From contig NZ_SJER01000005.1 of NCBI RefSeq assembly GCF_004785955.1, positions 62,001 to 126,000 of the forward strand: a DNA stretch of 64,000 nt, written 5' to 3'. Of this stretch, positions 11,892 through 60,001 are shown in pieces. The translations under genes were made by a program, and so were the position numbers. Numbering within the stretch: position 1 is the first letter of the stretch; the number at the start of each line of letters is the position of its first letter. Source of the DNA: Halostella litorea. Lineage in GTDB: Archaea > Halobacteriota > Halobacteria > Halobacteriales > Natronoarchaeaceae. The notes beneath the pieces are model-generated. The model saw nothing but the letters and a program-made list of their open reading frames with translations, had not been told where the DNA came from and ran no database searches.

Positions 11892-11935
11892 CGGGCACCG
11901 GTACACCGAAGGCGTCCGGCGGCGAACGCCCGCCC

Positions 11936-12091: not shown

Positions 12092-12100
12092 CGACCCGGC

Positions 12101-12838: not shown

Positions 12839-12866
12839 CGGTACCAGTCTCCAGAACTTAGCTTTT

Positions 12867-12885: not shown

Positions 12886-12974
12886 GTCGCTGCTGTTGCA
12901 ACTCGGTGATCCTCCCGTGACACAGCGGAATCGTGACGGTCGCCCGGGTTCGAGACGCTCCCCGATCGGTCCCA

Positions 12975-13337
12975 TCAGTCCGGGACGCCGGTCAACACGC
13001 GGGCAACGTCGTGGACGTTCTCGGTGTCCAGCAGCGCTTCGGCGGCGGTGCGGACGGCGAAGTCCGCGTCGAGGTCGACTCCGTAGCAGGCGGCGTACAG
13101 TTCCAGCCACTCGTTCATCGCGCGCCGGAGGCGGTCGAACTCCGCCTCGCCGAACCGCACGGCGCGGCCGCCGGTGCGACACTCGACGTACAGCGAGACG
13201 GTCGGCCCGAACCCCTCCCGGAGGACGGCCATCGCGCGCTCCTCGTCCGGGGGGTCGGCCGGCGGGTCGAACGCCGCCCGGCGCTGCTCGGCCGCCCGGG
13301 CGAGGTCGTCGATCCGGTCGCCGACCGCCTCGGTCAT
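12975..13337 (-). CDS. Hypothetical haloarchaeal protein next to fixC
   Basis: A 120-residue soluble, mostly helical protein without a motif that I recognise. It starts seven bases after the FixC-X stop on the same strand and is therefore probably the last gene of the fix transcript. Residues 1-45 are charged helix; a beta-like segment GPTVSLYVECRTGGRAVRF follows, then two helices with a Cys in YAACYGVDL. Its position suggests an accessory role for the electron-transfer complex, but nothing in the sequence proves this. Confidence 0.65.
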   Translation of the reverse strand: MTEAVGDRIDDLARAAEQRRAAFDPPADPPDEERAMAVLREGFGPTVSLYVECRTGGRAVRFGEAEFDRLRRAMNEWLELYAACYGVDLDADFAVRTAAEALLDTENVHDVARVLTGVPD

Positions 13338-13344
13338 CCGAGGC

Positions 13345-15003: not shown

Positions 15004-16657
15004 CGCTTGCCTCCTGAACCGCCTCGGCCAGTTCGCCCGCCTCGACGGCCTCCGTGAGGCGGGGGAGCACTTCGAACAGGTCGCCCTGCACGTAGTAGTC
15101 CGAGAAGTTCCGGATGTCCGCGTCCGCGTCCGTGTTGATCGCGATGATCGTGTCGGACTCGTCCATCCCGACCTTGTGCTGGACCGCGCCGGAGATACCC
15201 GCCGCGACGTACACGTCGGGTTCGACGACCTGCCCGGACTCGCCGATCTGGCGCTCCTCGGCCACGTAGTCCTCGACGTGGCCCTCGAAGCTGTACGAGG
15301 ACGTGATGACGCCCCGCGAGAGCCCCAGGTCGGCCTCGTCGAACGCGTCGACCAGGTCGAGCGCGAGTTCGATCCCCTCGGTCGGGTCGTCGCCGATGCC
15401 GCGGCCGACCGCGACGACCACGTCGTTGCCGGTGAGGTCCACACCGCCCGAGAGGCGGTCGTGCTCCGTCACTGCGACGCGGAACCAGTCGTCGGACAGG
15501 TCCATGTCGTACTCGACCACCTCGGCCTCGCGCTCCGGGTCGGGGTCGGGCACCTCGAAGCTCCCCGGGATCACCGACCCGCCCTGCGGGTGGAAGTCCC
15601 GGTTCGGCTTGTCGATACAGAGGATCGTGGAGTACTCGAACCCCGAGAAGTCCGGGCGCTTCATGTGCAGGACGCGCTCGAACTCCGTCTTGTCGCCGGT
15701 CCCGCCGGTCTTGGCGGGGTTTGAGATCATCGCGTTCTCGATGTACAGCCCCGAGCAGTCGCTGGCGAGGCCGGAGTCGAGTTCGCCCTGGACCAGCGCC
15801 GAGAGGTCACGGCCGTTGTTCGTCGCCGGGAACAGGGTGTACCGGGGCTCGTGGTACTCCTTCCAGTCGACGCCCTCCCGGCCCTCGGCGGCCAGGTCGC
15901 CGCCCGCCCGCATCATGTCGCAGACGATCTCGGTGTAGGGCTTGTGGCGGAACCGCTCCAGCCGGTCGTCCTCGTGGTAGACGACCAGGTCGGCGCCGAG
16001 CGCCACCACCTCGTCGACGTACGACGACGCGTCGTCCCCGACCAGCACGGCGACGACCCGCTCGTCCTCGTCGTACTGCTCGTTGTAATCGTCCATCAGT
16101 TCGCGGGCCTTCCCGAGCATCTCCCGGGAGACGTCGAGCAGGTCGCCGGCCTGCGTCTCGCAGTACACCCACATGTCGCGGTAGTCGCCGCCGACGGTGC
16201 CCTCGACCCACTGCTTGTCGTTGGTCGGGTGGTCGAGGTCGGGGTACTTCTCCTCGGGCGGCCGGTCGTCTATCTCGGGGCCCTCGCCGTCGCCGTCGTC
16301 GCTGCCCTCGACGGAGTCGATGCGGCTCTCGATCTGGGATTTGGCGGTCTTGCGGTCCTCGCCGTCCTTCTCGCGTTCGAGCAGGTCGCGCAGGACGTCG
16401 CCGTCGTCGATCTCCCGCACGAGGTTCGCCACGTCGGCGACGGTCAGTTCCGAGAGGTCGACCGTCTCGGGGTCGACCTCGCCGTCGTCGCCCTCGACCT
16501 TTTCGATGCGGTCCTCGATGAGCGTCTTGACGGGCGTTCGGTCCTCGCCGCCCTCCTCCAGTTCGAGCATCTCCCGTAGCTCGTCGGCGTCGTCGACCTC
16601 CTTGATCTTCGGGCCGAGCTCCGCGATGTCGTGGTCGGTGGGGTCTATCTCCGGCAT
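14996..16657 (-). CDS. fixB: Electron transfer flavoprotein alpha subunit FixB, with N-terminal duplicated module
   Basis: The 553-residue protein is about 200 residues longer than a normal ETF alpha subunit. Residues about 165-553 form the ETF alpha core, with the FAD-binding C-terminal region SYSFEGHVEDY, QIGESGQVVEPDVYVAAGISGAVQHKVGM and the IAINTDADADI motif. The first 120 residues hold two similar helical modules (about 10-58 and 73-120), each with a D-x-L-R-x-x-L-E core, a G-E-D-R turn and an I-E-x-R-I end. Such modules are absent from bacterial FixB and may bind a partner. It forms the heterodimer with FixA encoded just upstream. Confidence 0.9.
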   Translation of the reverse strand: MPEIDPTDHDIAELGPKIKEVDDADELREMLELEEGGEDRTPVKTLIEDRIEKVEGDDGEVDPETVDLSELTVADVANLVREIDDGDVLRDLLEREKDGEDRKTAKSQIESRIDSVEGSDDGDGEGPEIDDRPPEEKYPDLDHPTNDKQWVEGTVGGDYRDMWVYCETQAGDLLDVSREMLGKARELMDDYNEQYDEDERVVAVLVGDDASSYVDEVVALGADLVVYHEDDRLERFRHKPYTEIVCDMMRAGGDLAAEGREGVDWKEYHEPRYTLFPATNNGRDLSALVQGELDSGLASDCSGLYIENAMISNPAKTGGTGDKTEFERVLHMKRPDFSGFEYSTILCIDKPNRDFHPQGGSVIPGSFEVPDPDPEREAEVVEYDMDLSDDWFRVAVTEHDRLSGGVDLTGNDVVVAVGRGIGDDPTEGIELALDLVDAFDEADLGLSRGVITSSYSFEGHVEDYVAEERQIGESGQVVEPDVYVAAGISGAVQHKVGMDESDTIIAINTDADADIRNFSDYYVQGDLFEVLPRLTEAVEAGELAEAVQEASDD

Positions 16658-16659
16658 TG

Positions 16660-17514
16660 TCAGTCACCCGCCGCGAACGGCGCGAGTTCGTCGACCAGTT
16701 CGTCCATCTCCCCGTCGTCGTCGGGGTCTATCGCCGTCGCCTCCCGCTCGGAGGGCGCTTTCGGGATGGGGTCGACGCCGGCGACGATGGTCGGCGAGCC
16801 GTCCAGACCGATGTAGTCCGGGTCGAGGTTCAGCGCCTCGTGGTCCCACACCGTGAGGTGGTCCTCGAACGCCTCGGCCCGCTTTCGGGCCTCCTCGCGC
16901 AGGTCCTTGTGGGCGAGCCGGTGGCTCGCCTGCCGGTAGCTCGGCTCGAACTCGGGGTCCGCGACGATGAAGGCCGGCATCGGGGCCTCGACGGTCTCTA
17001 TCTCGGAGACGTCGCCCTCGACGAGGCGCTTCGCGCGGACCGTCCCGGCGTCCTCGTCGACGTCCAGCGAGACGACGTGGGTGATCATCGGCCAGTCGAG
17101 ACACCAGCAGGTCTGGGGGCCGGTGTGGCCGGTCTCGCCGTCCGCGGTCTTGAAGCCCGCGAACACCAGGTCCGGCTCGTCGTCCAGTTTCTGGAGGCCC
17201 GTGGCGACGGTCATCGCGGTCGCCCAGGTGTCCGCCGCGCCCATCTCGCGGTCCGAGAGGAGATAGAGGTCGTCGGCGTACACGTCGCGCATCCCCTCCT
17301 GGAGGATCTCCTTGTACCCCGGCGGCCCCATGCTCATCAGCGAGACGTGGCCGCCGTTTCGGACCTTCGTCTGGAACGCCGCCCGGAGGGCGTGTTTGTC
17401 GTTCGGATTCATCACCGTCGGCGTCTTCCCCCGTTCGAGGTGGCCGTCCTCGTCGAAGGACACCTGCCCCTCGCGGAAGTCGGGGACGCCTTTCGTCAGC
17501 GCTACTGTGTGCAT
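16660..17514 (-). CDS. fixA: Electron transfer flavoprotein beta subunit FixA
   Basis: The 284-residue protein is the ETF beta subunit. It begins MHTVALTKGVPDF and has the family pattern MNPNDKHALRAA near residue 35, LLSDREMGAADTWATA near 85 and AGFKTADGETGHTGPQ near 119, which line the flavin/AMP site. With FixB it accepts electrons from dehydrogenases and delivers them to FixC. It precedes fixB by two bases and follows the ferredoxin gene after about 90 bases. Confidence 0.9.
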   Translation of the reverse strand: MHTVALTKGVPDFREGQVSFDEDGHLERGKTPTVMNPNDKHALRAAFQTKVRNGGHVSLMSMGPPGYKEILQEGMRDVYADDLYLLSDREMGAADTWATAMTVATGLQKLDDEPDLVFAGFKTADGETGHTGPQTCWCLDWPMITHVVSLDVDEDAGTVRAKRLVEGDVSEIETVEAPMPAFIVADPEFEPSYRQASHRLAHKDLREEARKRAEAFEDHLTVWDHEALNLDPDYIGLDGSPTIVAGVDPIPKAPSEREATAIDPDDDGEMDELVDELAPFAAGD

Positions 17515-47932: not shown

Positions 47933-49196
47933 CCGCGGCCACCTCCGGGGGGTCGCGGCCGCGCCGCGCCAGCGCCCGGCGCATCTCGTTGGTGACGACC
48001 ATGTACCCCTCGTCGAACCCCATGCCGGGCTTCGCGAGGACCTGCGCGGCGTCGGTGGCGAGCGCGACGTGCGCGCAGGCCCGGGCCGAGGTGACCGTCT
48101 CGTTGCACGTGCCGCCGAGGTAGGCGCGCGCGTCGGTGCCCTCGCAGTACCGGACGGCCTCGCCCGACCGCTGTACGCCGCCCAGGTCCGGCGTCTTCAC
48201 CTGCACCACGTCGGCCGCGCCCGCGTCGACGAACGCCCGCACGTCGGCGAGCGTGTTGCACCACTCGTCGGCGACGACGTCCACGCCGACGCCGGCGGCC
48301 GCGAGGCCGTCGCGCAGTTCCGCCATCGCGTGGATCTGCTCGGCCCGGCCGCCCGCGTCCATCGGCCCCTCGACCTGCAGGGGGTAGGGCGCGGCCGCGG
48401 CGCGCAGGTCGGCGAAGTAGTCGGCCACCTCGGCGCGGTCGTACGGCGGCCCGAACACGTCCCCGAGCGTCCCGTACACGTCGACGTGGAACCGCGGCGA
48501 GTAGCCCTCGGGGCCGAGTTCGCCCGCCCGGGTCGAGAGCCAGTCGAGGTAGTCGACGAGGCCCTCGCCGTCCTCGCCGACCTTCCCGGCGCTGTTGAAC
48601 AGGCCGTGTGGGAGCACCGGGACGCCCTTGACCAGCATCTTCTCGGCGTTCTCCCGGCGCGCGTCGCCCGACTGGCCGAACACCGGGACCGGCCGGTCGG
48701 CGGGCGTCGCGTCGAGCGCAGCGGCCAGCACGTCGGTTCGGGTCGTCCGGCGCGCCCGGGCGGCCGCGGCGAGCAGCGCCTGCGAGACGCCGTAGCGGAC
48801 CGCCGTGTGGAGGCGGTCGCCGTCGCTCTCGGCCGGCGGGAGGTCCGCCACGACCGCGGCGTTCCGTGCGAACTCGGCCGCCTCGCGGCCCCGCAGGGCG
48901 TCGGCGACCGGCCCCTCGACGACGTCGGCGTACCGCTCGGCGCGGAACAGCGGGTCCCGGCCGCCGGCCCCGGAGTACTGGACGGCGGCGCAGTCGCCGG
49001 AGACGACCGTGCCGTCCGACAGTTCCAGGTCCACCGTCAGCGCCTCGCCCGCCTCCCGGATCCGGTCGAACCCGGGCGTGACGGGGTCGCCCTCGTAGGT
49101 GAACCCGTCCCGGGTCGCGCCGCGGGTGATCGCCCGCTGGTCGTCGAAGAAGAAGCCGGAGACGGCGGGGACCGCCCGGACGCGCTCAATCCGCAT
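47925..49196 (-). CDS. mal: Methylaspartate ammonia-lyase
   Basis: The protein (about 423 residues from MRIERVRAV) is an enolase-superfamily lyase that removes ammonia from 3-methylaspartate to give mesaconate. Family features are QYSGAGGRDPLFRAE near residue 74, PVFGQSGDARRENAEKMLVKGVPVLPHGLFN near 170-200, and VVQVKTPDLGGVQ with the catalytic Lys near residue 335. An ATG three codons upstream (49205) is an alternative start. It overlaps the mutase E gene by about ten bases. Confidence 0.92.
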   Translation of the reverse strand: MRIERVRAVPAVSGFFFDDQRAITRGATRDGFTYEGDPVTPGFDRIREAGEALTVDLELSDGTVVSGDCAAVQYSGAGGRDPLFRAERYADVVEGPVADALRGREAAEFARNAAVVADLPPAESDGDRLHTAVRYGVSQALLAAAARARRTTRTDVLAAALDATPADRPVPVFGQSGDARRENAEKMLVKGVPVLPHGLFNSAGKVGEDGEGLVDYLDWLSTRAGELGPEGYSPRFHVDVYGTLGDVFGPPYDRAEVADYFADLRAAAAPYPLQVEGPMDAGGRAEQIHAMAELRDGLAAAGVGVDVVADEWCNTLADVRAFVDAGAADVVQVKTPDLGGVQRSGEAVRYCEGTDARAYLGGTCNETVTSARACAHVALATDAAQVLAKPGMGFDEGYMVVTNEMRRALARRGRDPPEVAADD

Positions 49197-50628
49197 CCGT
49201 CCCACCTCCGGGGCGGCCGATGAGTTTGCCGTCGCTTATCGCGTCCACGTCGTCGGCGACCATCGTGAACGAGCGGTCGCGGCCCTCGGTGCGCGCCCGG
49301 TCGTCAAGGCGGGCGCCATGGACCTCCTTGATCTCGTCCCGGACGGCGAGATCCGCGAACGTGAAGATCCGGACGCGGCCGTCGTCGTCGCGGGCGGGCA
49401 ACACGTCGCCCGCCGCGCTGTCGCTGGGCGCGAACGGGACGTCGAGGGCGCCCGATTCGAACGTGCGGACGACGCCGCGGGCCACGTCGCCGTCGCCGCG
49501 TCGATACACGGCGTCCAGCAGGTCGCGGGTGGCGCGTTCGATCAACTCCCGTTCCTCGGCGATGCCGTCGATGTCGATGTCCTGCTCGATGAGCATGTCG
49601 ATGAGCTGTCTCGTGGTGCGGAGTCCCGCGGCGTTTGCCTCCTTCGTCGGGACGCCCCGGAACTCCTGGGGGGACTTCGTGATCACCTTGTCGGGTCGCG
49701 CGAGGGCGGCGGTCGCGCCGCCGAGGCCGATGACGCCGTTCGCGCGGGCCTCGTCCGGCGGGAACCCGCCCATCCACTCGTGGAAGACGGTCGTCACCGT
49801 CACCGCGTCGGGGAGGTACTCCTCGCCGAGGCTCCGGAGCGCGCGCAGGGCGGCCACGTCCTGCACGACGTTGCCGACCTGCCCGTAGCCGAGCGTCAGC
49901 GAGCGGACGCCCTGCGTGGCCGCGAGCAGCCCCTCCACGACCATCACCGCGATGGCGATGCAGGGCGGGACGAGCGTCCCGGTCAGCGGCCCGAACGGCT
50001 CGCGGTTGATCCGGACGCCGCGGTCGGTGTACGCGCCGGCGAGGCGGTCGACGTACTGCCAGTGTTCGATCGTCGTTTCGAGGTCGTCCTCCTTCGTGTA
50101 GGGGATGTTGTAGGATATCGGCCCGCCCTCGAAGCTCTGGAACCCGCCGGCGAACGTGACCGCCGCCAGCAGGCGCGCGTCGGGCGTCCCGTGGCGGACC
50201 TCTATCGGCCGGTCGAGCGCCTCGATCAGCGTCCGGCAGCCGTCGACGCCGTGGTTGACGGCCGGGAAGCCGTTGAGCGCGTCCTCGCCGGTCTCGCGGG
50301 ACTCCGCGAGGCCCTCGCGGGCCTTCGCGTACTCGTTGTCGCGCGTGTACGAGTCGATGGTCGTCGGCAGCAGGTCCGCGAGGCCGTCGCGTTCCAGGTG
50401 GCGGAGCAGGTCGATCTGGTCGTCCAGCCGCGGGACGCCGGCCCGGGGCTGAAGCAGCGGTCGGTCCGCCGTCTCCAGCACGCGGGCGAACCGCTTGCCG
50501 TCGGGAAGCGACTCGTGGTACGCCACCGCCTCGTCGAAGTCGACGTCCTCGCCGGTGGGCCAGTCGCCCCGGACGGACTCGTCGATGCGTCGCAACTCCT
50601 CGGGGGGAAGGCGTTCGTCGCGTATCAT
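49186..50628 (-). CDS. glmE: Methylaspartate (glutamate) mutase epsilon subunit
   Basis: The 480-residue TIM-barrel subunit of adenosylcobalamin-dependent glutamate mutase. The segments LQPRAGVPRLDDQIDLLRHLE, GGPISYNIPYTK and YGQVGNVVQDVAALRA are typical. With GlmS it converts L-glutamate to threo-3-methylaspartate by radical carbon-skeleton rearrangement. It starts 7 bases after the glmS stop and overlaps the ammonia-lyase. Confidence 0.95.
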   Translation of the reverse strand: MIRDERLPPEELRRIDESVRGDWPTGEDVDFDEAVAYHESLPDGKRFARVLETADRPLLQPRAGVPRLDDQIDLLRHLERDGLADLLPTTIDSYTRDNEYAKAREGLAESRETGEDALNGFPAVNHGVDGCRTLIEALDRPIEVRHGTPDARLLAAVTFAGGFQSFEGGPISYNIPYTKEDDLETTIEHWQYVDRLAGAYTDRGVRINREPFGPLTGTLVPPCIAIAVMVVEGLLAATQGVRSLTLGYGQVGNVVQDVAALRALRSLGEEYLPDAVTVTTVFHEWMGGFPPDEARANGVIGLGGATAALARPDKVITKSPQEFRGVPTKEANAAGLRTTRQLIDMLIEQDIDIDGIAEERELIERATRDLLDAVYRRGDGDVARGVVRTFESGALDVPFAPSDSAAGDVLPARDDDGRVRIFTFADLAVRDEIKEVHGARLDDRARTEGRDRSFTMVADDVDAISDGKLIGRPGGGTDAD

Positions 50629-50634
50629 GCGTCG

Positions 50635-51072
50635 CTACGCCCGAACCCGTTCGTCCGGCTCCGTGCTGTGGATCCCGAGGTCCTGTCGGAGGGCGGCGAC
50701 TGCCTCCTCGGGGTCGGTCTCGGAGTCGAAGACGCGGTCGAAGCCGAGCCGGCGGAACCGCTCGCGGGTCTCGGCGAAGTCGTTTTGCCCGACCGCGAGG
50801 TTGCCGCCGATGTAGGTGACCGCGTCGGTCTCGTGCCCGGCGAGCGTCTCGTGGAACCCCTGGCAGTCCTGCTCGGCGTGGCCGTACAGCGAGGAGACCA
50901 GTACGGCCTCGGCGTCGTGGGACGCGGCTGCGCTCGCGAACTCCTCCTGGGAGGTCTGGACGCCGAGGTTGACGACGTCGAAGCCGGCCGCTTCGAACGT
51001 CTGTTCGAGGATCGTGATGCCCACGACGTGGGCATCGGACCCGATAACGCCGAGGATGACTGTCTGGGCCAT
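50635..51072 (-). CDS. glmS: Methylaspartate mutase S (cobalamin-binding) subunit
   Basis: The 145-residue protein has a Rossmann-like B12-binding domain with the motif Asp13-x-His15-x-x-Gly18 in SDAHVVG, where the His is the lower cobalt ligand, and VSSLYGHAEQD and YIGGNLAVG for the nucleotide tail. It is the first gene of the glmS-glmE-mal-mch-citE series. The ATG giving MAQTVILG is preferred to one ten codons upstream. Confidence 0.93.
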   Translation of the reverse strand: MAQTVILGVIGSDAHVVGITILEQTFEAAGFDVVNLGVQTSQEEFASAAASHDAEAVLVSSLYGHAEQDCQGFHETLAGHETDAVTYIGGNLAVGQNDFAETRERFRRLGFDRVFDSETDPEEAVAALRQDLGIHSTEPDERVRA

Positions 51073-51108
51073 CGGTACCACCACGGACCCGGACCGGGGC
51101 ATTAAACC

Positions 51109-51145
51109 TAATGGTCTTTCATGATAATACTCCTTAATGGTCTTT
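51109..51145. repeat. Direct repeat TAATGGTCTTT in the methylaspartate divergent promoter
   Basis: TAATGGTCTTT occurs at 51109-51119 and 51135-51145, a 26-base period (about 2.5 turns). It lies between glmS and the divergent CoA-transferase gene, in the AT-rich promoter stretch, and could be bound by a regulator. Confidence 0.5.
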
Positions 51146-51153
51146 TCACATGT

Positions 51154-51172
51154 ATGTGGGCACTAACCACAT
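51154..51172. promoter_or_regulatory. Inverted repeat ATGTGG-n7-CCACAT
   Basis: A 6-bp perfect inverted repeat with 7-base spacer (ATGTGG GCACTAA CCACAT) lies in the same divergent promoter region, some 50-70 bases before the CoA-transferase ATG at 51225, close to where its promoter must be. It has the size of an archaeal operator. Confidence 0.45.
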
Positions 51173-51224
51173 TCATCACGAACTATAGCCAAGGTTTTTC
51201 CGCCGGGTCGACCCAGGGAGTCGC

Positions 51225-52388
51225 ATGGGAGCCCTCGACGACCTGCGCGTGCTCGACCTGACGCAGGTGCTCGCCGGCCCGTACTGTACGATGCTGCTCG
51301 CGGACATGGGCGCGGACGTGGTAAAGGTCGAACGGCCCGGCGGCGACCTCATCCGGTCGAACCCGCCGTTCGCCGAGGACCCGGAGGCCGAGGCGTACGG
51401 CGGGTACTTCCAGAGCGTCAACCGCGGCAAGCGGAGCCTCGAACTCGACCTCGGGGACGGGCGCGACCGCGAGGCGTTCCTCGACCTCGTCGAGCGCGCC
51501 GACGTCGTCGTCGAGAACTACCGCGCCGGCACGATGGAGTCGTTCGACCTGGGCTACGAGACGCTCCGGGAGCGCAACCCCGAACTGGTGTACAGCGCGA
51601 TCCGGGGCTTCGGCGACCCGCGAACCGGCGCGACCGACCGGCAGGGCCAGCCCTCGTTCGATCTCGTCGCGCAGGCGCTGGGCGGCGTCATGGAGATCAC
51701 CGGGCAGGCCGACGGCCCGCCGACGAAGGTCGGCCCCGGGATCGGCGACCTGTTCACCGCCGCGCTGAACGCCGTGGGGATCCTCGCGGCGGTCCACCAC
51801 CGCGAGCGAACCGGCGAGGGGCAGTTCGTCGACACCGGCATGTACGACGCCATCGTCTCGCTGTGCGAGCGGACGGTGTACCAGCACTCCTACACCGGCG
51901 ACCCGCCGACGCGACGGGGGAACTCCCACCCGACGCTGTTTCCCTACGACGCCTTCGAGACCAGGGACGGCCACGTCGTCGTCGCGGCGTTCGGGAACAA
52001 CCACTGGACGGCGCTGTGCGAGGCGATGGACCGCCCGGACCTGGCGGCCGACTACCCCGACCCGGGGAGCCGCCTGCGGAACCGCGAGTCGCTCCGGGAG
52101 ACCATCGCCGCGTGGACCGCCGACCGGACGACCGACGAGGCCGTCGCCGCGCTCGACGGACTGCCCGTCGCGCCGGTGCAAAACACCGCGGACATCTTCG
52201 ACGACCCGCACCTCCGCGAGCGGGAGATGCTGGTCGAGGTCGACCAGCCCGGCGCCGACCGGCGCGTCACCGTCGCCGGCACGCCGATCAAGATGACCGG
52301 GACGCCGCCGGAGCCCGGCGACCGCGCGCCGCTGCTCGACGAACACCGCGAGGAGGTCCTCGGCCGGACCGCCGCCTCGGACGACTGA
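51225..52388 (+). CDS. mct: CaiB/BaiF CoA-transferase (succinyl-CoA:mesaconate CoA-transferase candidate)
   Basis: The 387-residue family III CoA-transferase has LDLTQVLAGPYCTMLLADMGADVVKVERPGGD at the start (11-41), the ENYRAGTMESFDLGYE segment near 97, and Asp175 in GIGDLFTAALNA as the likely catalytic residue. In the methylaspartate cycle it transfers CoA from succinyl-CoA to mesaconate. Here it is divergent from the glmS operon, sharing its intergenic region; other CoA acceptors remain possible. Confidence 0.85.
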   Translation: MGALDDLRVLDLTQVLAGPYCTMLLADMGADVVKVERPGGDLIRSNPPFAEDPEAEAYGGYFQSVNRGKRSLELDLGDGRDREAFLDLVERADVVVENYRAGTMESFDLGYETLRERNPELVYSAIRGFGDPRTGATDRQGQPSFDLVAQALGGVMEITGQADGPPTKVGPGIGDLFTAALNAVGILAAVHHRERTGEGQFVDTGMYDAIVSLCERTVYQHSYTGDPPTRRGNSHPTLFPYDAFETRDGHVVVAAFGNNHWTALCEAMDRPDLAADYPDPGSRLRNRESLRETIAAWTADRTTDEAVAALDGLPVAPVQNTADIFDDPHLREREMLVEVDQPGADRRVTVAGTPIKMTGTPPEPGDRAPLLDEHREEVLGRTAASDD

Positions 52389-52535
52389 GAGCGTTCGCTC
52401 TCGCCGAGTGCCGGTGAGCGCCGGTACCGGTGGGCGATCCCGGTACATAGCGAGAGCAAACGCCGTGTGGGGCCAGACCCCTGTGGGATCGACGGTATGG
52501 AAATCCTTTTGCGCCGCCCGTCCGCAGGTCCCCGC

Positions 52536-52856
52536 ATGGACTGGCCCCACGACCCCGACGGCGACGAGGGCAGCGAAGGGATGCGGAAGTACGGGATGGC
52601 GATCCTCGCCAAGAAACTGGACGAGGACGAGGGCTTCCCGCTCGACGTCGACGAGTTCGTCGCGGAACATGGCGACGAGCCGCTCCGGCTCAACCACCGC
52701 CGCATCGTCAGCGTCGCCGACGTGTTCGAACACGTCCGCGAGGACGAGTTCGAGGACATCGTCTCGTTCCACAAGGGCGTCGGCCGCGCGATGCGCGAGG
52801 GCGGCTTCTGGGAGTACCACCCGCAGGGCGAGGACCCCGAGCACAAGCCCGCGTAA
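52536..52856 (+). CDS. DUF5785 haloarchaeal protein
   Basis: The 106-residue acidic protein starts MDWPHDPDGDEGSEGMRKYGMAILAKKLD, a start conserved in the family (DUF5785, as I recall it). It ends EYHPQGEDPEHKPA. A longer frame would add 23 residues of unlike sequence. Function is not known. Confidence 0.7.
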   Translation: MDWPHDPDGDEGSEGMRKYGMAILAKKLDEDEGFPLDVDEFVAEHGDEPLRLNHRRIVSVADVFEHVREDEFEDIVSFHKGVGRAMREGGFWEYHPQGEDPEHKPA

Positions 52857-53008: not shown

Positions 53009-53596
53009 ATGGAAAGCGTGACGATCAGAGACGTGATGACCAGGGAGTACGTCGGCGTCAGCGAGTCCGACACGGTCCTCGGGGCGGTGCGGCTGATGCG
53101 CGAGGAGGAGGCCGGCAGCGTCGTCGTGCTCCGCGGCAGCGACCCGGTCGGGATGCTGACCGAGTGGGACGTGCTCGGTGTCGTCGCCGACGAGGCGGAC
53201 CCCGCGGAGACGACCGTCGCCTCGGTGATGTCGGAGCCGGTTCTCACCGTCGCCGCCGACGAGAGCCTTCAGACTGCGACCGGGAAGATGTCGAGCGAGC
53301 GGGTCCGGCGGCTGGTCGTGACCGACGACGGCGAAGTCGTGGGCGTGCTGAGCGAGCGCGACGTCATCGCGGCCGCCGCTACTGGCTCCGCGCCCGAGTC
53401 TGCCCCGGCCGCGCCCCACGACGCGGACCCGGTCGCGGCCGCCACGGTCGAGGGGGCCCAGCGCGACGACCGGGTCCGGGCGGAACCGAACGGCGGCTAC
53501 TCCGATCAGGGCGTCTGTGAGGCCTGTGGCGCGCTCGCCGACACGCTCCGGGAGTTCAACGGCCAGCTCGTCTGCGCCGAGTGTCGGGAAGTCTAA
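53009..53596 (+). CDS. CBS-pair protein with C-terminal zinc ribbon
   Basis: The 195-residue protein has two CBS motifs (about 8-62 and 70-125), each with the VMSxxVLTV-type start and LTEWDVLGV/LSERDVIAA ends, which normally bind adenosyl ligands. A Pro/Ala linker leads to a C-terminal zinc-ribbon pair, CEACGA and CAECRE (about 170-193). The combination suggests a nucleotide-sensing regulator. The ligand is unknown. Confidence 0.85.
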   Translation: MESVTIRDVMTREYVGVSESDTVLGAVRLMREEEAGSVVVLRGSDPVGMLTEWDVLGVVADEADPAETTVASVMSEPVLTVAADESLQTATGKMSSERVRRLVVTDDGEVVGVLSERDVIAAAATGSAPESAPAAPHDADPVAAATVEGAQRDDRVRAEPNGGYSDQGVCEACGALADTLREFNGQLVCAECREV

Positions 53597-53846: not shown

Positions 53847-55157
53847 ATGTCATACCGCATGAGACGGCGTGACGTGTTAAAGGGTGTCGGAGTTGCTGGA
53901 ACGGTCGGCGTCGCCGGCTGTATCGGAAGCGATGACGGCGGCGACGGGGGCGGCAGCGGCCCCGACCTGCTGACCGTCATCGGTTACCCCGAAAGCGGGA
54001 TCCAGTTGTTCCGTGACTACTACAGTGCGTCCGACGGTTCCGAGGACATCCTCATCCCGGACGGCCTGCAGGACCCGGCGCTGCCGGGGCAGGTCGGCAA
54101 CGAGATGAGCAACGTCACCGGCACGGCCCCGGCGGCCGGCGGCCCGAACCAGGAAGCGTTCACCTCGCTCTACGAGGACGAGTACGGCGAGTCCCCCGGC
54201 GTGTTCACGTCGCAGTCCTACGACTCCAGTGCGATCCTCATCCTCGCCAACGCCGCGGCCGGCGAGAACAGCGGCCCGGCGGTCCGCGACCAGATGCGCC
54301 GGATGGCCAACCCCGAGGGCGACACCTACGGCCCCGAGGAGTTCGTCTCCGCGGTCGAGGCGGCCGCCAACGGCGAGAACGTCAACTACCAGGGCGCGTC
54401 CAGCGCCGTGAACTTCGACCAGAACGGCGACCCCGCCTCCGCGGCCTACCAGATCTGGGAGTTCGCGGGACAGGACGCCGACTCGGTCGACGTCCAGGAG
54501 ACCCAGAACTTCGAGGGCGAGAACCCCGATGGGGCCGGTCCCTCGGCCGACGAGTCGCCCGGCGGCACGGGCCGCACCATCGAACTGGGCGTGTTGCTCC
54601 CCGAGACCGGTGACCTGGCGTCGACCGGCGGCCCGATGATCAACGCCTCCGAGATCCCGGCGATGCAGGTGAACAACTCCGACCTGGACCTCGAAGTGAA
54701 CGTCCAGTTCGAGGACACCAACACCTCGCCGGACCAGGGTGTCAGCGGCGCGGGGTCGCTCATCAGCGGCGGCGTGCCCGGCGTCAACGGCACCGCGTCC
54801 TCCGGCGTGAACGTCCCGGTGTGCCAGGAGTCGCTCATCCCGAACGAGGTCGTCGGCTGCTCGCCGTCCAGCACCGCGCTGTCGGTGACGAACCTCGACG
54901 ACGACGACTTCATCTTCCGGACCGCGCCGAGCGACCAGCTGCAGGGCCGCGTGATGGCCCAGGTCGCCTCCGAGCGGCTCGGGGCGGAGTCCGCCGCGAC
55001 GCTGTACGTCAACAACGACTACGGCCAGCAGCTCTCGAACCGCTTCAGCAACGTGTTCGAGGACACGTTCGACGGCGAGGTGTACGACCAGATCAGCTTC
55101 AACATCGGCGAGTCCTCGTACACCAACGTCATCGACTCGGCGCTGTCGAGCGGATAG
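53847..55157 (+). CDS. Circularly permuted LivJ-type substrate-binding lipoprotein
   Basis: The 436-residue protein has a Tat-type signal (RRRDVLKGVGVAG) and lipobox VAGC (Cys25), then an Asp/Gly linker. The binding-protein body is in reversed order. Residues 39-210 match the usual C-terminal half (LLTVIGYPESGIQLFRDYYS, PDGLQDPALPG, FTSQSYDSSAILILANA). About 30 linker residues follow, and residues 244-436 match the usual N-terminal half (TIELGVLLPETGDLASTG, ending SSYTNVIDSALSSG). The normal order would join SALSSG directly to PDLLTV. Both halves look complete, so a folded, anchored protein is likely. It is convergent with livF. Confidence 0.85.
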   Translation: MSYRMRRRDVLKGVGVAGTVGVAGCIGSDDGGDGGGSGPDLLTVIGYPESGIQLFRDYYSASDGSEDILIPDGLQDPALPGQVGNEMSNVTGTAPAAGGPNQEAFTSLYEDEYGESPGVFTSQSYDSSAILILANAAAGENSGPAVRDQMRRMANPEGDTYGPEEFVSAVEAAANGENVNYQGASSAVNFDQNGDPASAAYQIWEFAGQDADSVDVQETQNFEGENPDGAGPSADESPGGTGRTIELGVLLPETGDLASTGGPMINASEIPAMQVNNSDLDLEVNVQFEDTNTSPDQGVSGAGSLISGGVPGVNGTASSGVNVPVCQESLIPNEVVGCSPSSTALSVTNLDDDDFIFRTAPSDQLQGRVMAQVASERLGAESAATLYVNNDYGQQLSNRFSNVFEDTFDGEVYDQISFNIGESSYTNVIDSALSSG

Positions 55158-55308: not shown

Positions 55309-56013
55309 TCAGCCGCCGAGGAACTGCTGTCTGACCTCCTCGTCGTTCAGCAGCACCGTCCCTTCGTCCTCGAACCGGTTCTGCCCGTTGGCGAGCACGT
55401 AGCCGCGGTCACAGCGGCGCAGCGCCTCCTTGGCGTTTTGCTCGACCATGAGGATCGCCGTCCCGTCGTCGTTGATCTCGTCTATCTTGTCGAACATCTC
55501 GTCGACCAGGTCCGGCGCGAGGCCGGCGCTCGGCTCGTCGAGCAGGAGCAGGTCGGGGTCGAGCATCAGCGCCCGGCCCATCGCCAGCATCTGCTGCTGG
55601 CCGCCGCTCATCGTGCCGGCCTTCTGGCCCTTGCGCTCCTCGAGGATGGGGAACCGGTCGTACACCTCGCGGAGCGCGTCCTCGGGCACCTCGTCCAAGA
55701 TGTACGCGCCCATCTCCAGGTTCTCCTCGACGGTCAACTCCGCGAACACGTTGTCGCTCTGGGGGACGTAGCCCATCCCCTTGTGGATGACGTCCTCCGG
55801 CTCGATGCCGGTGATGTCCTCGGTCGCGAAGGTGACGGTCCCGGCCATGTGGGTCGTCAGCCCGAACACGGACTTCATCACCGTCGACTTCCCCGCGCCG
55901 TTGGGGCCGACGATGGTGACGTACTCGCCGTCTGCGACGTCCAGGTCGACGTCCGTGAGGATCTGGAGGTCGCCGTAGCCGGCGTCCAAGTTGCGGACTT
56001 CGAGCAGGCTCAT
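55309..56013 (-). CDS. livF: Branched-chain amino-acid-type ABC transporter ATPase LivF
   Basis: The 234-residue ATPase has Walker A GPNGAGKS (36-43), a Q-loop, the signature MSGGQQQMLAMGRALM and Walker B LLLLDEPSAGLAP. The sequence YVPQSDNVFAELTVEENLEMGAY is typical of LivF. With LivG, LivH and LivM it forms a HAAT-type importer. It overlaps livG by four bases and is the last gene of the minus-strand operon. Confidence 0.95.
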   Translation of the reverse strand: MSLLEVRNLDAGYGDLQILTDVDLDVADGEYVTIVGPNGAGKSTVMKSVFGLTTHMAGTVTFATEDITGIEPEDVIHKGMGYVPQSDNVFAELTVEENLEMGAYILDEVPEDALREVYDRFPILEERKGQKAGTMSGGQQQMLAMGRALMLDPDLLLLDEPSAGLAPDLVDEMFDKIDEINDDGTAILMVEQNAKEALRRCDRGYVLANGQNRFEDEGTVLLNDEEVRQQFLGG

Positions 56014-56843
56014 ACTTCACCACCGAGATACGCCTCGATGACGTCGTCGCTCGCCTTGACCTCGGCGGGCGTGCCGTCCTTGAGCACCCGGCCCTGGTGC
56101 ATCACGATCACCCGTTCGCAGTTCTCCATGATCAGGTCCATGTCGTGTTCGACGATGAGGAACGTGTAGCCCTCCGCCCGGAGCTCGTGGATGTGGTCGA
56201 GCAGTCGGTTCTCCAGGGAGGGGTTGACGCCCGCGAACGGCTCGTCGAGCAGGAGCACGTCCGGGTCCGTCAGCAGCGCGCGGGCCATCTCCAGCAGCTT
56301 CCGCTGGCCGCCCGAGAGGTTGCCCGCGTACTCGTCGGCGAGGTGGTCGATCTCGAAGAAGTCGAGCACCTCCCACACCCGCTCTAGCTGTTCGGTCTCC
56401 TGGCGCTGGACGTTGTCGCGAACCCCGGGGGTGATCGAGCGCCACAGCGCCTCGCCGATCTGCCCCTTGGGCGCGAGCATCATGTTCTCCAGCACCGTCA
56501 TCTCCTCCAGTTCGCGGGCGATCTGGAAGGTGCGTGCGAGCCCGCGGTTGGCGATCTCGTGGGGTGCGAGTCCGGTGATGTCCTCGCCGTTGAACCGGAC
56601 CGCGCCGCTGTCGGGGTCGTGCATCCCCGTGATGAGGTTGAACGTCGTCGACTTCCCCGCGCCGTTGGGGCCGATGAGGCCGGTGAGGGTCCCCTTCTCG
56701 ACCCCGAAGCTGACGTCGTCGACGGCGGTGATGCCGCCGAACGTCTTGCGCAGTCCCTCGACCTTGAGGGGGACGTCGGACTCCGTCTCGACGCCGCCCC
56801 CCGTGATGTCCGTTTCGCCGGTCGTGTCGGTGGTGCCGCTCAT
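56010..56843 (-). CDS. livG: Branched-chain amino-acid-type ABC transporter ATPase LivG
   Basis: The 277-residue ATPase has Walker A GPNGAGKSTTFNLITG near residue 58, the signature LSGGQRKLLEMARAL, and Walker B VLLLDEPFAGVNP. An acidic/Thr-rich N-terminal extension (about 1-25) is halophile-like. It overlaps livF and livM by four bases each, so the operon is translationally coupled. Confidence 0.95.
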   Translation of the reverse strand: MSGTTDTTGETDITGGGVETESDVPLKVEGLRKTFGGITAVDDVSFGVEKGTLTGLIGPNGAGKSTTFNLITGMHDPDSGAVRFNGEDITGLAPHEIANRGLARTFQIARELEEMTVLENMMLAPKGQIGEALWRSITPGVRDNVQRQETEQLERVWEVLDFFEIDHLADEYAGNLSGGQRKLLEMARALLTDPDVLLLDEPFAGVNPSLENRLLDHIHELRAEGYTFLIVEHDMDLIMENCERVIVMHQGRVLKDGTPAEVKASDDVIEAYLGGEV

Positions 56844-58228
56844 TGTTGTTCACCTCCGTCGGTCGCCGCGGCGTCCGCGTCGCCGCCGACGCCCTCGGGC
56901 CGCGAGAGGTCGATGCTCGACGCGGTCTCCTTGCGGTGCCCGAGCATCCCGTCCGGCCGGTTGTGCATCAGCCAGATCAGGACCAGCCCCATGATGACGA
57001 GCCGGAGCTGGCTGATACTGTTGAGCGTGTACGCGAGCAGCGGCCACGGGTCGAACGACCCCATGGCGGCCATCGCCTGGCCGAAGCTCCCCGGTCCTTC
57101 GAGGCTGCCGACCGCCGCCTCGATGAGGTTCTTGATGAGACGCGGCCCCTCGTACAGCGCCGCCGCGAAGACGGCACCGCCGAGGAAGCTCCCGGTGTTG
57201 GAGCCGGGACCGCCGATTATCAGCGCGATCCAGATGTAGAACGTGATGTTCGGCCGGAACGACGGGGGCGTGATGCTCCCGCGGCCGGCGTACCAGAGGA
57301 TGCCGCCGAAGGCCATCAGCGCACAGCCGAACACGAACGACTTCAGCTTGAAGCGGTTCGTGTTCTTCCCCAGCGAGTTGGCGACGTCCTCGTCCTCGCG
57401 GATCGCCTTGAGGACGCGGCCGAACGGCGACGAGCCGGTCCGGGTGAGCAGCCAGTAGAACAGGGCACACACCAGCAGCAGGATCAGCCCGTACGTGAGG
57501 CTGTCGACGACCGGCTTGGGGTTGTTGGCGATGAAGTTCTGCTGGACGAAATCGACGAAGCCGAGATACGGGTCCCAGAGGAACAGCGCGCTCAGTATCG
57601 CCTCCAACGGTGGCGTGTAGTTGAGTATGAGCCCGCCGCCGCCGCCCAGCCCGATCGTGTCCGCCGCCGGGTCGAGCGTGAACAGCCACAGGTCGATCGT
57701 ATCCGGGACCGTGTACGTCTGGAACGTCCGGGACATCAGCGTGAACCGGATGATCTCGGAGAACGCGATCGTGACGATAGCGAGGTAGTCCGCCCGCAAG
57801 CGAAGCGCTGGCAGTCCGACCAGGAGGCCGAACAGCGCCGCGACGACCACGCCGGCGACGACGCCGACGCCCAGCGGCAGCCCGAAGCCGCCGACCTGGG
57901 CAGCGCCGCCCTGTGCCGCCGGCGGCTTGGAGACGATAGCGGTCACGTAGACGCCGATCGCCATGAACCCGACGATGCCGATGTTGAACAGCCCGGTGTA
58001 TCCCCAGTGCAGGTTCAACGCGAGCGCGAGCATGCCGAACACGCCGATGTAGAACGTGAGGTTGGCGACGGTGTTCAACTGCCCGCGCAGCGAGAACCCG
58101 AAGACCACGCCCGAGAGGATGTACACCAGGTAGATGGCCCCGAGGACGCCCAGCACGAGTCCGGGGTCCCGGTTGAGGAAGCCAAAGAGGCGGTCGCCGA
58201 CGCCGGCGGAGGAGGCGTCGTCGCTCAT
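56840..58228 (-). CDS. livM: Branched-chain amino-acid-type ABC permease LivM
   Basis: The 462-residue permease has about ten membrane segments. NLHWGYTGLFNIGIVGFMAIGVYVTAI near residue 68 and the coupling-type loop SPFGRVLKAIREDEDVANSLGKN near 290 are diagnostic. It pairs with LivH in the membrane. The ATG at 58228 gives the normal N-terminus; a longer frame lies inside livH. It overlaps livG and livH by four bases each. Confidence 0.93.
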   Translation of the reverse strand: MSDDASSAGVGDRLFGFLNRDPGLVLGVLGAIYLVYILSGVVFGFSLRGQLNTVANLTFYIGVFGMLALALNLHWGYTGLFNIGIVGFMAIGVYVTAIVSKPPAAQGGAAQVGGFGLPLGVGVVAGVVVAALFGLLVGLPALRLRADYLAIVTIAFSEIIRFTLMSRTFQTYTVPDTIDLWLFTLDPAADTIGLGGGGGLILNYTPPLEAILSALFLWDPYLGFVDFVQQNFIANNPKPVVDSLTYGLILLLVCALFYWLLTRTGSSPFGRVLKAIREDEDVANSLGKNTNRFKLKSFVFGCALMAFGGILWYAGRGSITPPSFRPNITFYIWIALIIGGPGSNTGSFLGGAVFAAALYEGPRLIKNLIEAAVGSLEGPGSFGQAMAAMGSFDPWPLLAYTLNSISQLRLVIMGLVLIWLMHNRPDGMLGHRKETASSIDLSRPEGVGGDADAAATDGGEQQ

Positions 58229-59337
58229 GCTGTCGACCTCCCGCTGAAGATCCCCTGCGGTTTGAACAGCAGGATGGTTATCATCACGAGGAACGCCGCC
58301 GCCCGGCCGAACGCCGAGGGGATCCAGATCACGGACATCGACGCCGTCAGCCCGATGATGATCCCGCCGGCGATCGCGCCGTATATCGACCCGATGCCGC
58401 CGAGGATGACGGCGGCGAACACGAGCAGGAGAAGCAGCCAGCCGTCGTTGAAGCCGAGCGTCCCCTTCCAGAGGACGAACATGTAGCCCGCGATACCGGT
58501 GAGTCCGCCGCCGATGATCCACGTCGAGCGGATGACCCGCTCGGTCGGGATCCCGGTGACGCGAGCGAGATCCTCGTTGTCAGACATCGCGCGCATCGCC
58601 TTGCCGAGTTTGGTCCGCTGGAGCAGGAGGTGAACCCCGAGCATCAGCGACCCGGCCACGACCAGCAGCGTGAGGTCGTGTGCGTGGACGAACACCGTCC
58701 CGTCGATGAACACCAGGCTCCACTCCGGCTGACCCCCGGCGTCGGTCGTGCCCCGAACGCCCGGACCGAAGACGAACTGGATCAGGTACCGGAGCGCGAA
58801 GGCGACACCGACGCTCGTGATGAGCAAGGCGATCCCGTCCTCGTCACGGATCGGCTTGTACACGTACCGGTCGACGAGCAGCGAGAGAGCGATAGTCGAC
58901 AGTCCGGCAACGATCATCCCGAGAATCACCGCAAGCGGCGACGTGACGATGCCGGCACCGATCGCGCCACCGAACACCGACCCGCCCGCGCCGACCAGCA
59001 GAAGGGAACCGATGTTGGCGTTCCCGTAGCCGGCGACGAGATACGTCGTCGCCCAGCCGGCGAACGCCCCGCTCGTGAGGTAGTCCCCGTGCGAGAAGTT
59101 CGCGAAGTTGAGAATGCTGTACGTCATCGAGAGTCCGACGCCGGCGAGTCCGACGACCAGGCCGCGCATCAGCCCGTCCCAGACGTAACCGCCGACGTCG
59201 CTGAACGCCACTCGACCGGCGATCAGCCCCTCGATGAGAAACCACGCCATCCAGACGGCAACGAGACCGACAACGATGGCGAACGGTTGCTCTACGACAA
59301 CCCGCCGCCCACGTGAATACGTTTCAGATACACCCAT
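58225..59337 (-). CDS. livH: Branched-chain amino-acid-type ABC permease LivH
   Basis: The 370-residue permease has about eight membrane segments. It contains LSMTYSILNFANFSHGDYLTSGAFA near residue 75, the EAA-like loop TKLGKAMRAMSDNEDLARVTGIP near 238 and the C-terminal GSIYGAIAGGIIIG and FKPQGIFSG. It is the first gene of the livHMGF operon. The ATG giving MGVSETYSRGRR was chosen over one seven codons upstream. Confidence 0.93.
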   Translation of the reverse strand: MGVSETYSRGRRVVVEQPFAIVVGLVAVWMAWFLIEGLIAGRVAFSDVGGYVWDGLMRGLVVGLAGVGLSMTYSILNFANFSHGDYLTSGAFAGWATTYLVAGYGNANIGSLLLVGAGGSVFGGAIGAGIVTSPLAVILGMIVAGLSTIALSLLVDRYVYKPIRDEDGIALLITSVGVAFALRYLIQFVFGPGVRGTTDAGGQPEWSLVFIDGTVFVHAHDLTLLVVAGSLMLGVHLLLQRTKLGKAMRAMSDNEDLARVTGIPTERVIRSTWIIGGGLTGIAGYMFVLWKGTLGFNDGWLLLLLVFAAVILGGIGSIYGAIAGGIIIGLTASMSVIWIPSAFGRAAAFLVMITILLFKPQGIFSGRSTA

Positions 59338-59512
59338 TGGCAACACTCCACACAACACCTTCCCGCACTCAACTCATAATAACTTTTCCTTGACCGTTCG
59401 TCACGCCGGAGGGCGGATTTTGGTAAACGATTGCCGGATTTCATCGGCATCTAGTTGAGGAAAACACCTATGCCCGAGCGGCCGGGATTCCGGAGCACAG
59501 CAGCTAGCAACG

Positions 59513-60001
59513 ATGCAGATCGATACCCCGACGACCGACGACCTCGCTGCCCTGGTCGACCTGTGGGTCCGGTTGGCCGACGAGCAGCGCCGACACGGCT
59601 CCCGCCTCCTCGCCGAGGGCAACCGGACGCCGGTCCGCGAAACCATCGCCAGAAGCGTCGTCACGGGGAACGCCCGGATCGCCCGCCGGGACGGCGACAT
59701 CGTGGGCTTCGTCACGTACGAGATGGACGCCGGGACGTACGAACTGGACCTGACGCGGGGGTCAGTCACCAACCTGTTCGTCCGCCGGGACGACCGGAAC
59801 GCCGGCGTCGGCAGCGAGTTGCTCGCGGCCGCCGAGCGGGCGCTTGCCGAGGACGGAGCGGACGCGGTCACGCTCGAAGTGCTCGCCGAAAACGAGGCGG
59901 CCCGACGGTTCTACCGCCGGGCGGGCTACGGCGACCGCCGCGTCGTCATGGAGAAGGCGCTGCCGGACAAAAGCGATACTCACTCAAAGGGCGACCGATA
60001 A
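59513..60001 (+). CDS. GNAT family N-acetyltransferase
   Basis: The 162-residue protein is a GNAT enzyme: SVTNLFVRRDDRNAGVGSELLAAAERAL is the acetyl-CoA loop and helix, and EVLAENEAARRFYRRAGY the C-terminal signature. The substrate is not predictable. It is divergent from the livH operon with about 175 bases between the starts and lies just before tRNA-Thr. Confidence 0.85.
   Translation: MQIDTPTTDDLAALVDLWVRLADEQRRHGSRLLAEGNRTPVRETIARSVVTGNARIARRDGDIVGFVTYEMDAGTYELDLTRGSVTNLFVRRDDRNAGVGSELLAAAERALAEDGADAVTLEVLAENEAARRFYRRAGYGDRRVVMEKALPDKSDTHSKGDR

What the first reader, a model, noticed from the sequence alone, without database searches (positions are those of the whole stretch)
53847..55157. 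Substrate-binding lipoprotein appears to be circularly permuted
After the lipobox Cys25 and an Asp/Gly linker, residues 39-210 are what is normally the C-terminal half of LivJ-type binding proteins (VIGYPESGIQLFRDYYS through FTSQSYDSSAILILANA to the final strand). Residues 244-436 are what is normally the N-terminal half (IELGVLLPETGDLASTG through SSYTNVIDSALSSG, then stop). The last residues, SALSSG, would continue directly into the first body residues, PDLLTV, in an unpermuted protein. Both halves look complete and the frame is open, with promoter and terminator in place. A natural circular permutation that keeps the lipid anchor at the new N-terminus would be remarkable in an ABC transporter receptor. 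An assembly or rearrangement artefact must be excluded first.
Basis: partly seen in the sequence, partly recalled or inferred. Interest (0 to 1): 0.85.

Follow-up and report, generated by a model that had tools for sequence, protein, structure and literature searches.

The report
Circularly permuted amino-acid receptor in haloarchaea
In many salt-loving archaea the surface protein that captures nutrients for a branched-chain-amino-acid-type importer is built with its two halves in swapped order, and its gene neighbours suggest that this swap happened in place, most likely more than once at the same spot.

Summary
Confirmed and enlarged. The gene at 53847-55157 encodes a Tat/lipobox substrate-binding protein of LivJ type (Pfam Peripla_BP_6) with its halves swapped: residues 39-224 are the ordinary second half, 243-436 the first. 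It is no artefact: near full-length permuted genes occur in 5 of 5 genomes of the genus and in 126 of 292 Halobacteria genomes (counted). Listed matches outside Halobacteria covered one half each. Receptors of both orders stand convergent to LivF (92 of 100 permuted, 28 of 39 ordinary ORFs), so the swap probably happened in situ. An HMM of 32 ordinary proteins aligns to 47 of 47 permuted ones as positions ~228-412, then ~31-227. AlphaFold folds it (pLDDT 85, pTM 0.79). Trees of the receptor and, independently, of neighbouring LivFGMH reject a single permuted clade (AU p 0.011 and 6.6e-5): at least two origins at one loop, unless ordinary order was repeatedly restored. The known precedent, the permuted glucose-binding lipoprotein TpMglB-2, is another family cut elsewhere. 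Most ordinary relatives carry a lipobox too, so tethering alone does not explain the swap. Verdict: real; new variant of a known kind.

The parts
53847..55157 (+). permuted LivJ-type substrate-binding lipoprotein, 436 aa
   Evidence: conserved
53847..53921 (+). twin-arginine signal peptide and lipobox, Cys25 (residues 1-25)
   Evidence: Cys25 nearly invariant; the N-terminal start of the ordinary-order HMM matches here in 43 of 47 permuted relatives
53922..53960 (+). Gly/Asp/Ser-rich tether (residues 26-38)
   Evidence: tether lengths 5-47 aa in 44 permuted relatives
53961..54518 (+). ordinary SECOND half, now first (residues 39 to about 224); ordinary HMM positions about 228-412
54519..54572 (+). 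linker that joins the old C- and N-termini (residues about 225-242, ENPDGAGPSADESPGGTG)
54573..55154 (+). ordinary FIRST half, now last (residues 243-436); ordinary HMM positions about 31-227
55309..56013 (-). LivF-type ATPase, convergent with the receptor gene
   Evidence: convergent neighbour
56010..56843 (-). LivG-type ATPase
56840..58222 (-). LivM-type permease (start codon not settled)
58225..59358 (-). LivH/UrtB-type permease
52467..52856 (+). DUF5785 protein, upstream neighbour shared by some permuted and some ordinary receptor loci
   Evidence: 29 of 100 permuted, 7 of 39 ordinary
53009..53596 (+). CBS-domain protein, upstream neighbour shared by some loci of both kinds
   Evidence: 22 of 100, 4 of 39
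59513..60001 (+). GNAT acetyltransferase, downstream neighbour shared by some loci of both kinds
   Evidence: 39 of 100, 5 of 39

Best explanation
The gene encodes a genuine, conserved circular permutant of the LivJ-type (type I, Peripla_BP_6) receptor of an ABC importer. The protein is exported by the Tat route, lipidated at Cys25 and tethered by a short Gly/Asp-rich stretch that now enters the C-terminal lobe (equivalent to E. coli LIVBP residue ~193/194) instead of the start of the N-terminal lobe. A linker joins the old termini. The two halves fold back into the usual two-lobed receptor, which binds an amino-acid-like ligand in the cleft and delivers it to the convergently encoded LivH/LivM/LivG/LivF. 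The ordinary order is ancestral; the swap took place in situ in this locus, perhaps by tandem duplication of the receptor gene followed by loss of the outer halves, and most likely at least twice (clade C apart from A/B/D). Shown: sequence order, conservation, shared gene arrangement, common breakpoint, confident predicted fold, polyphyly in two data sets. Inferred: export, lipidation, ligand class, transport, and the duplication route.
For: Pfam/PDB matches in swapped order and their union on re-ordering. Near full-length permuted homologues in 5 of 5 genus genomes, 75-91% identical apart from the window's own; 79 distinct loci from named records; 126 of 292 Halobacteria genomes (counted). 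143 permuted, 46 ordinary and 2 partial ORFs among the 191 that match the ordinary HMM (E up to 1e-20, stretches over 60 bits) in all loci held, with some genes held under two locus ids. HMM of 32 ordinary proteins: 47 of 47 permuted proteins read second half then first half; second-half starts at positions 223-231 (mode 228) and first-half ends at 226-228 (mode 227). LivF convergent within 3 kb beside 92 of 100 permuted and 28 of 39 ordinary receptor ORFs; the full set DUF5785, CBS, LivF, GNAT in 7 and 3 of these. AlphaFold2: permuted pLDDT 85.1, pTM 0.79; ordinary relative L122 85.8, 0.82; same secondary-structure elements in rotated order. Order-dependent structural alignment covers nearly all of 3td9 with the ordinary model (Z 41.5, 343 aligned, 2.2 A) but only the half 244-436 with the permuted one (Z 12.5, 187 aligned), as expected of a permutant. 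Codon positions differ 0.12-0.17, 0.10-0.14 and 0.32-0.36 (1st, 2nd, 3rd) against three relatives, as under purifying selection.
Against: I found no experiment on any member in the papers looked at. AlphaFold may have recalled the fold, and I could not measure lobe closure from coordinates. No duplication intermediate (N-C-N or C-N-C) appears among 191 matched ORFs and no relict half was found in 1.5 kb flanks apart from known tandem copies and the IS-split gene, so the route is unproven. The outer neighbours are shared by a minority of loci only. The ligand is not determined; NCBIfam matches of receptor and transporter are all below NCBI's cut-offs, and the LivH-like permease scores higher with UrtB than with LivH. 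Four other genomes of the window's family have no match at 1e-10.
Confidence: 0.92

Rival explanations
1. Assembly or rearrangement artefact, or a private pseudogene of this genome.
Against: Same order and open in independent assemblies of many genera, among them complete chromosomes such as Halostella pelagica CP040678.1; purifying pattern of codon changes.
Confidence: 0.005
2. One single permutation in an ancestor of Halobacteria; the ordinary-order genes inside the tree are later restorations or replacements.
For: The breakpoint is the same in the four permuted clades, and linkers of clades A, B and D look alike in places (SIPGSSxDRTV in A and D, GSDSGRT in B and D; read by eye). Clades A+B+D as one group are not rejected by LivFGMH (AU p 0.184). 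One ordinary gene, L135 (G086), lies next to clade A, or beside permuted L175 at support 83.
Against: All permuted as one clade: AU p 0.0096 (86 rows) and 0.011 (45 rows) from the receptor, 6.6e-5 from LivFGMH. Clade C groups with ordinary L122/L131/L141/L143 in the first-half tree, with L122 alone in the second-half tree, and with all four in the LivFGMH tree. Restoration would be needed several times, each time to a junction without the extra residues a second swap would be expected to leave; the 32 ordinary proteins, which built the HMM, match it in one piece.
Confidence: 0.2
3. One origin, with later gene conversion of both halves from local ordinary copies, which makes the permuted genes look polyphyletic.
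For: Genomes can hold both forms, e.g. G002.
Against: Needs separate conversion of both halves in each lineage; the neighbouring LivFGMH genes, outside the converted stretch, tell the same story for clade C; the linker of clade C looks unlike the others.
Confidence: 0.08
4. The permutation is an adaptation to membrane tethering, as was suggested for TpMglB-2.
For: 44 of 47 permuted proteins bear a lipobox Cys by motif.
Against: 24 of 27 haloarchaeal ordinary-order relatives bear one too, with overlapping tether lengths where these could be parsed, and in the same arrangement with LivF.
Confidence: 0.15

Closest known systems
TpMglB-2 (Tp0684), 'Type Ic / Cluster Bc' circularly permuted ligand-binding proteins (PMC4990184; abstract and passages read)
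   Same: Lipidated ABC-transporter receptor of type I fold with circularly permuted topology; binds its ligand; relatives with the same topology in other bacteria.
   Different: MglB (glucose) family of treponemes and Gram-positive bacteria; there the first three N-lobe strands moved to the C-terminus and the C-lobe strand order is unaffected. Here it is the LivJ/Peripla_BP_6 family of archaea, cut inside the C-terminal lobe, with ordinary relatives in the same gene arrangement and evidence for repeated origin.
LivJ/LivK, LIVBP and TM1135 (3td9)
   Same: Family, fold, neighbouring LivFGMH-type genes, acidic and hydroxyl residues at the amino-acid-binding positions (positions recalled).
   Different: Order of the two halves; anchor enters the C-terminal lobe; extra linker between the old termini.
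Other natural circular permutants, e.g. transhydrogenases, whose domain arrangements are said to have been acquired independently (PMC3320104; passages read)
   Same: Swapped order recognised from sequence; independent acquisition.
   Different: Those arrangements join whole functional units of an enzyme; here one loop inside a lobe of a receptor is the cut each time.
Engineered circular permutation of ligand-binding modules in FRET sensors (cited in PMC3454389; passages read)
   Same: Receptors of this kind tolerate new termini.
   Different: Made in the laboratory, not natural.

Membership tests
LivJ-type substrate-binding protein (Pfam PF13458 Peripla_BP_6) | Score above the curated cut-off | tested here: met
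   93 bits against cut-off 31.7, in two stretches; 47 of 47 permuted relatives match at E up to 0.001
LivJ-type substrate-binding protein (Pfam PF13458 Peripla_BP_6) | Ordinary order of the two halves | tested here: not met
LivJ-type substrate-binding protein (Pfam PF13458 Peripla_BP_6) | NCBIfam LivJ model (NF011933) above its cut-off | tested here: not met
   38 bits against 477; the ordinary relative L122 also fails with 65.3
LivJ-type substrate-binding protein (Pfam PF13458 Peripla_BP_6) | Encoded beside LivF, LivG, LivM, LivH | tested here: met
   by Pfam, and by best NCBIfam match for LivF, LivG and LivM (below cut-offs; the fourth scores best as UrtB)
LivJ-type substrate-binding protein (Pfam PF13458 Peripla_BP_6) | Two-lobed fold with ligand cleft | tested here: inconclusive
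   pLDDT 85.1, pTM 0.79 and rotated secondary structure; order-dependent search covers mostly one half; no coordinates inspected
LivJ-type substrate-binding protein (Pfam PF13458 Peripla_BP_6) | Binds a branched-chain or other amino acid | not testable with these tools
   no experiment available
Circular permutant (N part of one = C part of the other and the reverse) | Both parts homologous in swapped order, little lost or duplicated | tested here: met
   47 of 47: HMM about 228-412 then about 31-227
TpMglB-2-like 'Type Ic' receptors | Circularly permuted type I receptor | tested here: met
   definition from PMC4990184
TpMglB-2-like 'Type Ic' receptors | MglB-type sugar-binding sequence family | tested here: not met
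   Pfam at E up to 1 lists only Peripla_BP_6, ANF_receptor and TAT_signal
TpMglB-2-like 'Type Ic' receptors | Cut in the N lobe, C lobe unaffected | tested here: not met
   cut equivalent to residue 193 of 2liv/2lbp, which is in the C-terminal lobe (lobe borders recalled)
Archaeal lipoprotein | Twin-arginine signal and lipobox Cys | tested here: met
   sequence motif only; lipidation itself not testable

The most novel reading that the evidence does not exclude
The same circular permutation, at the same loop of an orthologous receptor beside the same transporter, arose independently at least twice (clade C; A with or without B/D) in haloarchaea, so that ordinary and permuted orthologues form a natural replicated experiment on where an ABC receptor may be tethered.
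Probability: 0.68. Interest if true: 0.78.

Novelty: new variant of a known kind. Interest (0 to 1): 0.68.

Why it matters
A natural circular permutant among ABC receptors has been described in at least one family (TpMglB-2). Here is a second, archaeal case that offers what I did not see reported there: ordinary and permuted relatives in the same arrangement beside the same transporter, a common breakpoint, and probably repeated origin. That makes it testable whether permutation is neutral, is forced by a single permissive loop, or is selected because the anchor enters the other lobe; and it argues against tethering as a sufficient cause. It also matters practically: order-dependent profile and structure searches see mostly half of these receptors.

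Tried and rejected
Artefact or private rearrangement: rejected by independent genomes. Microhomology between the Gly/Asp tether DNA and the junction DNA as the reason for the shared breakpoint: 39 ordinary genes (some of them copies of one gene), junction windows ranked at mean percentile 0.51, so no signal. Relict halves in 1.5 kb flanks: none found beyond tandem permuted copies and an IS-split gene. Duplication intermediates: none among 180 and 191 matched ORFs.

Weak points of the trees. The first LivFGMH tree (68 of 86 rows, the other 18 lacking a full liv set) counted 5 changes; row L044_ORD had wrongly been given the liv genes of the permuted neighbour, and L135/L175 sit on long branches. 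One search was run on 45 of these 68 rows, chosen by hand without L044, L135, L139 and L175 among others, with the simpler LG+G4 model. The AU groups were named after a tree had been seen. A+B+D: not rejected by LivFGMH (p 0.184), weakly rejected by the receptor (p 0.037). B+D: joined by LivFGMH (100/99), weakly rejected by the receptor (p 0.032). The number of origins above two is therefore open. Rows dropped before the trees: L010, L100, L174; permuted rows thinned at 86% and ordinary at 93% identity (150 to 86 rows).

Labels to distrust. In one search my clade letter A was a default, so L170 and L174 there may belong elsewhere; L174 looks like clade C by sequence. The label 'colinear' came from the signal-peptide match; one search gives the order. 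My note says that 200 of 200 bootstrap trees need 3 changes (and that likewise 4); the outputs say 0% with one change and 5-95% ranges of 3-3 and 4-4.

Structure searches compare chains in sequence order, so the lack of a whole-length match for the permuted model says nothing against the fold; one row, 5er3, did align 238 residues from 40 to 407 (Z 11.5, 4.5 A).

Papers. Eight searches on permutation and two on context in the held open-access library; no listed title or abstract reports permuted receptors in haloarchaea. Most hits were seen as listings only. Passages were looked up in PMC12667903, PMC11757225, PMC8241124, PMC8305020, PMC3320104, PMC8303175 and PMC3454389; abstract and passages of PMC4990184; outline with abstract of PMC8416018. 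Subscription papers are mostly missing there.

Full report
What is there. The window gene at 53847-55157 (+) encodes 436 residues: a twin-arginine signal, lipobox Cys25, a Gly/Asp/Ser tether, then residues 39 to about 224 that match the second half, and 243-436 that match the first half, of LivJ-type receptors, joined by a linker. Pfam PF13458 finds it in two stretches at 93 bits; put back into ordinary order the same residues give one stretch at 105.7 bits and one main alignment to TM1135.

Is it real? The window lies in G000, contig C4. The permuted gene is present, open and nearly full length in 5 of 5 genomes of the genus (the other four 75-91% identical); G002 has the coordinates of Halostella pelagica DL-M4, CP040678.1. 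Four of the nine genomes searched in the family have no match at 1e-10. In the order, 323 of 392 genomes have some match, of either order. In the class search, single alignments that span both halves in the swapped order occur in 126 of 292 genomes (128 rows of the listing, read by hand and counted; G162, whose gene is split by an insertion, is included; only the 5 best candidates of a genome were scored, so this is a lower bound). Named records cover Halorubrum, Haloferax, Halobellus, Halorussus, Haloquadratum, Halogeometricum, Haladaptatus, Natrialba, Natronorubrum and others. In the phylum search (392 genomes, 185 with a match at 1e-6) the rows listed from outside Halobacteria each cover one half, as for ordinary-order or partial genes; the list is cut. 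Of eight plasmid records, seven cover both halves as two pieces and one holds a half. Among all loci held, 143 permuted, 46 ordinary and 2 partial ORFs matched the ordinary profile, some genes under two locus ids.

The junctions. A profile of 32 ordinary-order proteins (413 positions) matches each of them in one piece and each of 47 permuted ones as second half (start 223-231, mode 228) followed by first half (end 226-228, mode 227). The cut falls in the loop between a helix (SYTSxLxxAL) and the next strand (PDxLxVIGYP), equivalent to residue 193 of E. coli LBP/LIVBP. The old termini are joined by a variable linker, 2-22 unaligned residues, mostly 9-18. Linkers resemble each other within clades; A, B and D share motifs in places, C differs (by eye).

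The locus. In loci of at least 7000 bases, LivF lies convergent within 3 kb downstream of 92 of 100 permuted and 28 of 39 ordinary receptor ORFs (copies included); two ordinary ones have LivF in the same direction. The same convergent order occurs in three ordinary loci from outside Halobacteria, L151-L153. The outer neighbours are shared by fewer: DUF5785 by 29 and 7, CBS protein by 22 and 4, GNAT by 39 and 5, all four features together by 7 permuted loci (the window, L046, L049, L052, L098, L168, L176, of which L098 and L176 look like one gene) and 3 ordinary ones (L119, L122, L143). I read this as one orthologous locus in which the swap occurred in place; the ordinary order, shared with the outgroup, is ancestral.

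How often? With halves aligned apart and set in ordinary order, 47 permuted rows need 4 changes on the tree; 0% of 200 bootstrap trees have one change and the 5-95% range is 4-4. One clade is rejected (p 0.0096; 0.011 on 45 rows). Each half alone also needs 4 changes, with starred branches forcing 2. LivFGMH, which is independent of the receptor's own sequence, gives three groups, A, B+D and C, with 3 changes forced and a bootstrap range of 3-3 (45 hand-chosen rows, LG+G4), rejects all permuted as one clade (p 6.6e-5), A+C (3.3e-6) and B+C+D (0.0019), but not A+B+D (0.184). The receptor rejects B+C+D (0.0034) and B+D (0.032), A+B+D (0.037) and A+C (0.0185). I conclude: at least two origins are likely, three possible. 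Results that sit badly: ordinary L135 lies next to clade A or pairs with permuted L175 at support 83, on long branches; and receptor and LivFGMH disagree about B+D. The same breakpoint each time speaks either for a loop that alone tolerates new termini or for one origin with a complicated later history.

Fold and function. AlphaFold2 gives mean pLDDT 85.1, pTM 0.79 for the permuted protein and 85.8, 0.82 for an ordinary relative; the elements follow in rotated order: permuted E41-45 corresponds to ordinary E250-254, permuted H426-433 to ordinary H237-244. VIA-align covers nearly all of 3td9 with the ordinary model (Z 41.5, 2.2 A, 343 residues) and only 244-436 with the permuted one (Z 12.5, 3.2 A, 187 residues); most rows are like this, an exception being 5er3 with 238 residues from 40 to 407 at Z 11.5. 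Residues at the recalled amino-acid-binding positions of LIVBP fall in both halves: S319 and T343 (first half) and D72 (second half) are invariant in 47 permuted sequences, and the alignment to TM1135 pairs the TPAST, GYP and DG motifs. This supports an amino-acid-like ligand, by inference only. Upstream lie methylaspartate mutase E and S and succinyl-CoA:mesaconate CoA-transferase (NCBIfam above cut-off), but they flank the receptor in only some relatives, so they say little about the ligand.

Tethering. Lipobox Cys by motif: 44 of 47 permuted and 24 of 27 haloarchaeal ordinary proteins, with overlapping tether lengths where they could be measured (five ordinary tethers were not parsed and one value of -9 is a parsing error). 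The suggestion made for TpMglB-2, that permutation may serve anchoring (PMC4990184, passages), is thus not sufficient here; what changes is the lobe to which the anchor is attached.

Known or new? TpMglB-2 is the closest precedent that I found and founds a permuted 'Type Ic' class; the haloarchaeal receptors belong to another sequence family and are cut in the other lobe. Ten searches of the held library showed no account of them (listed under Tried and rejected). I file it as a new variant of a known kind.

Noticed in passing
L174 (G162:C2), 5845-8643: A permuted receptor gene split by a ~1.4 kb insertion that carries a 388-aa transposase-like ORF (6967-8133; judged by eye, no family search); LivFGMH-type genes follow.
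   Followed up: partly
L090, L094, L095 (Haladaptatus): Two tandem permuted receptors before one LivFGMH set; in L090 and L095 the second copy keeps the twin-arginine signal but lacks the lipobox Cys.
   Followed up: partly
L044 (Halorussus litoreus), 9839-17322: A second, distant ordinary-order receptor with its own livF/G/M hits lies directly beyond the permuted receptor locus.
   Followed up: no
L047 and L048 (Halorussus halobius): The permuted receptor locus occurs on two scaffolds of one assembly with identical match values; real duplication or assembly effect not tested.
   Followed up: no
window 49186-52388: Methylaspartate mutase E and S and succinyl-CoA:mesaconate CoA-transferase next to the transporter locus; homologues of the three stand there in L049, L053 and L061 too.
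   Followed up: partly
L139, L144 (G027, G083): Ordinary receptors followed by LivH-M-G-F in the same direction rather than convergent; L139 is a long branch in the trees.
   Followed up: no
L135 (G086): Ordinary-order receptor on a long branch next to permuted clade A; a candidate for either the nearest ancestral form or a restoration.
   Followed up: partly
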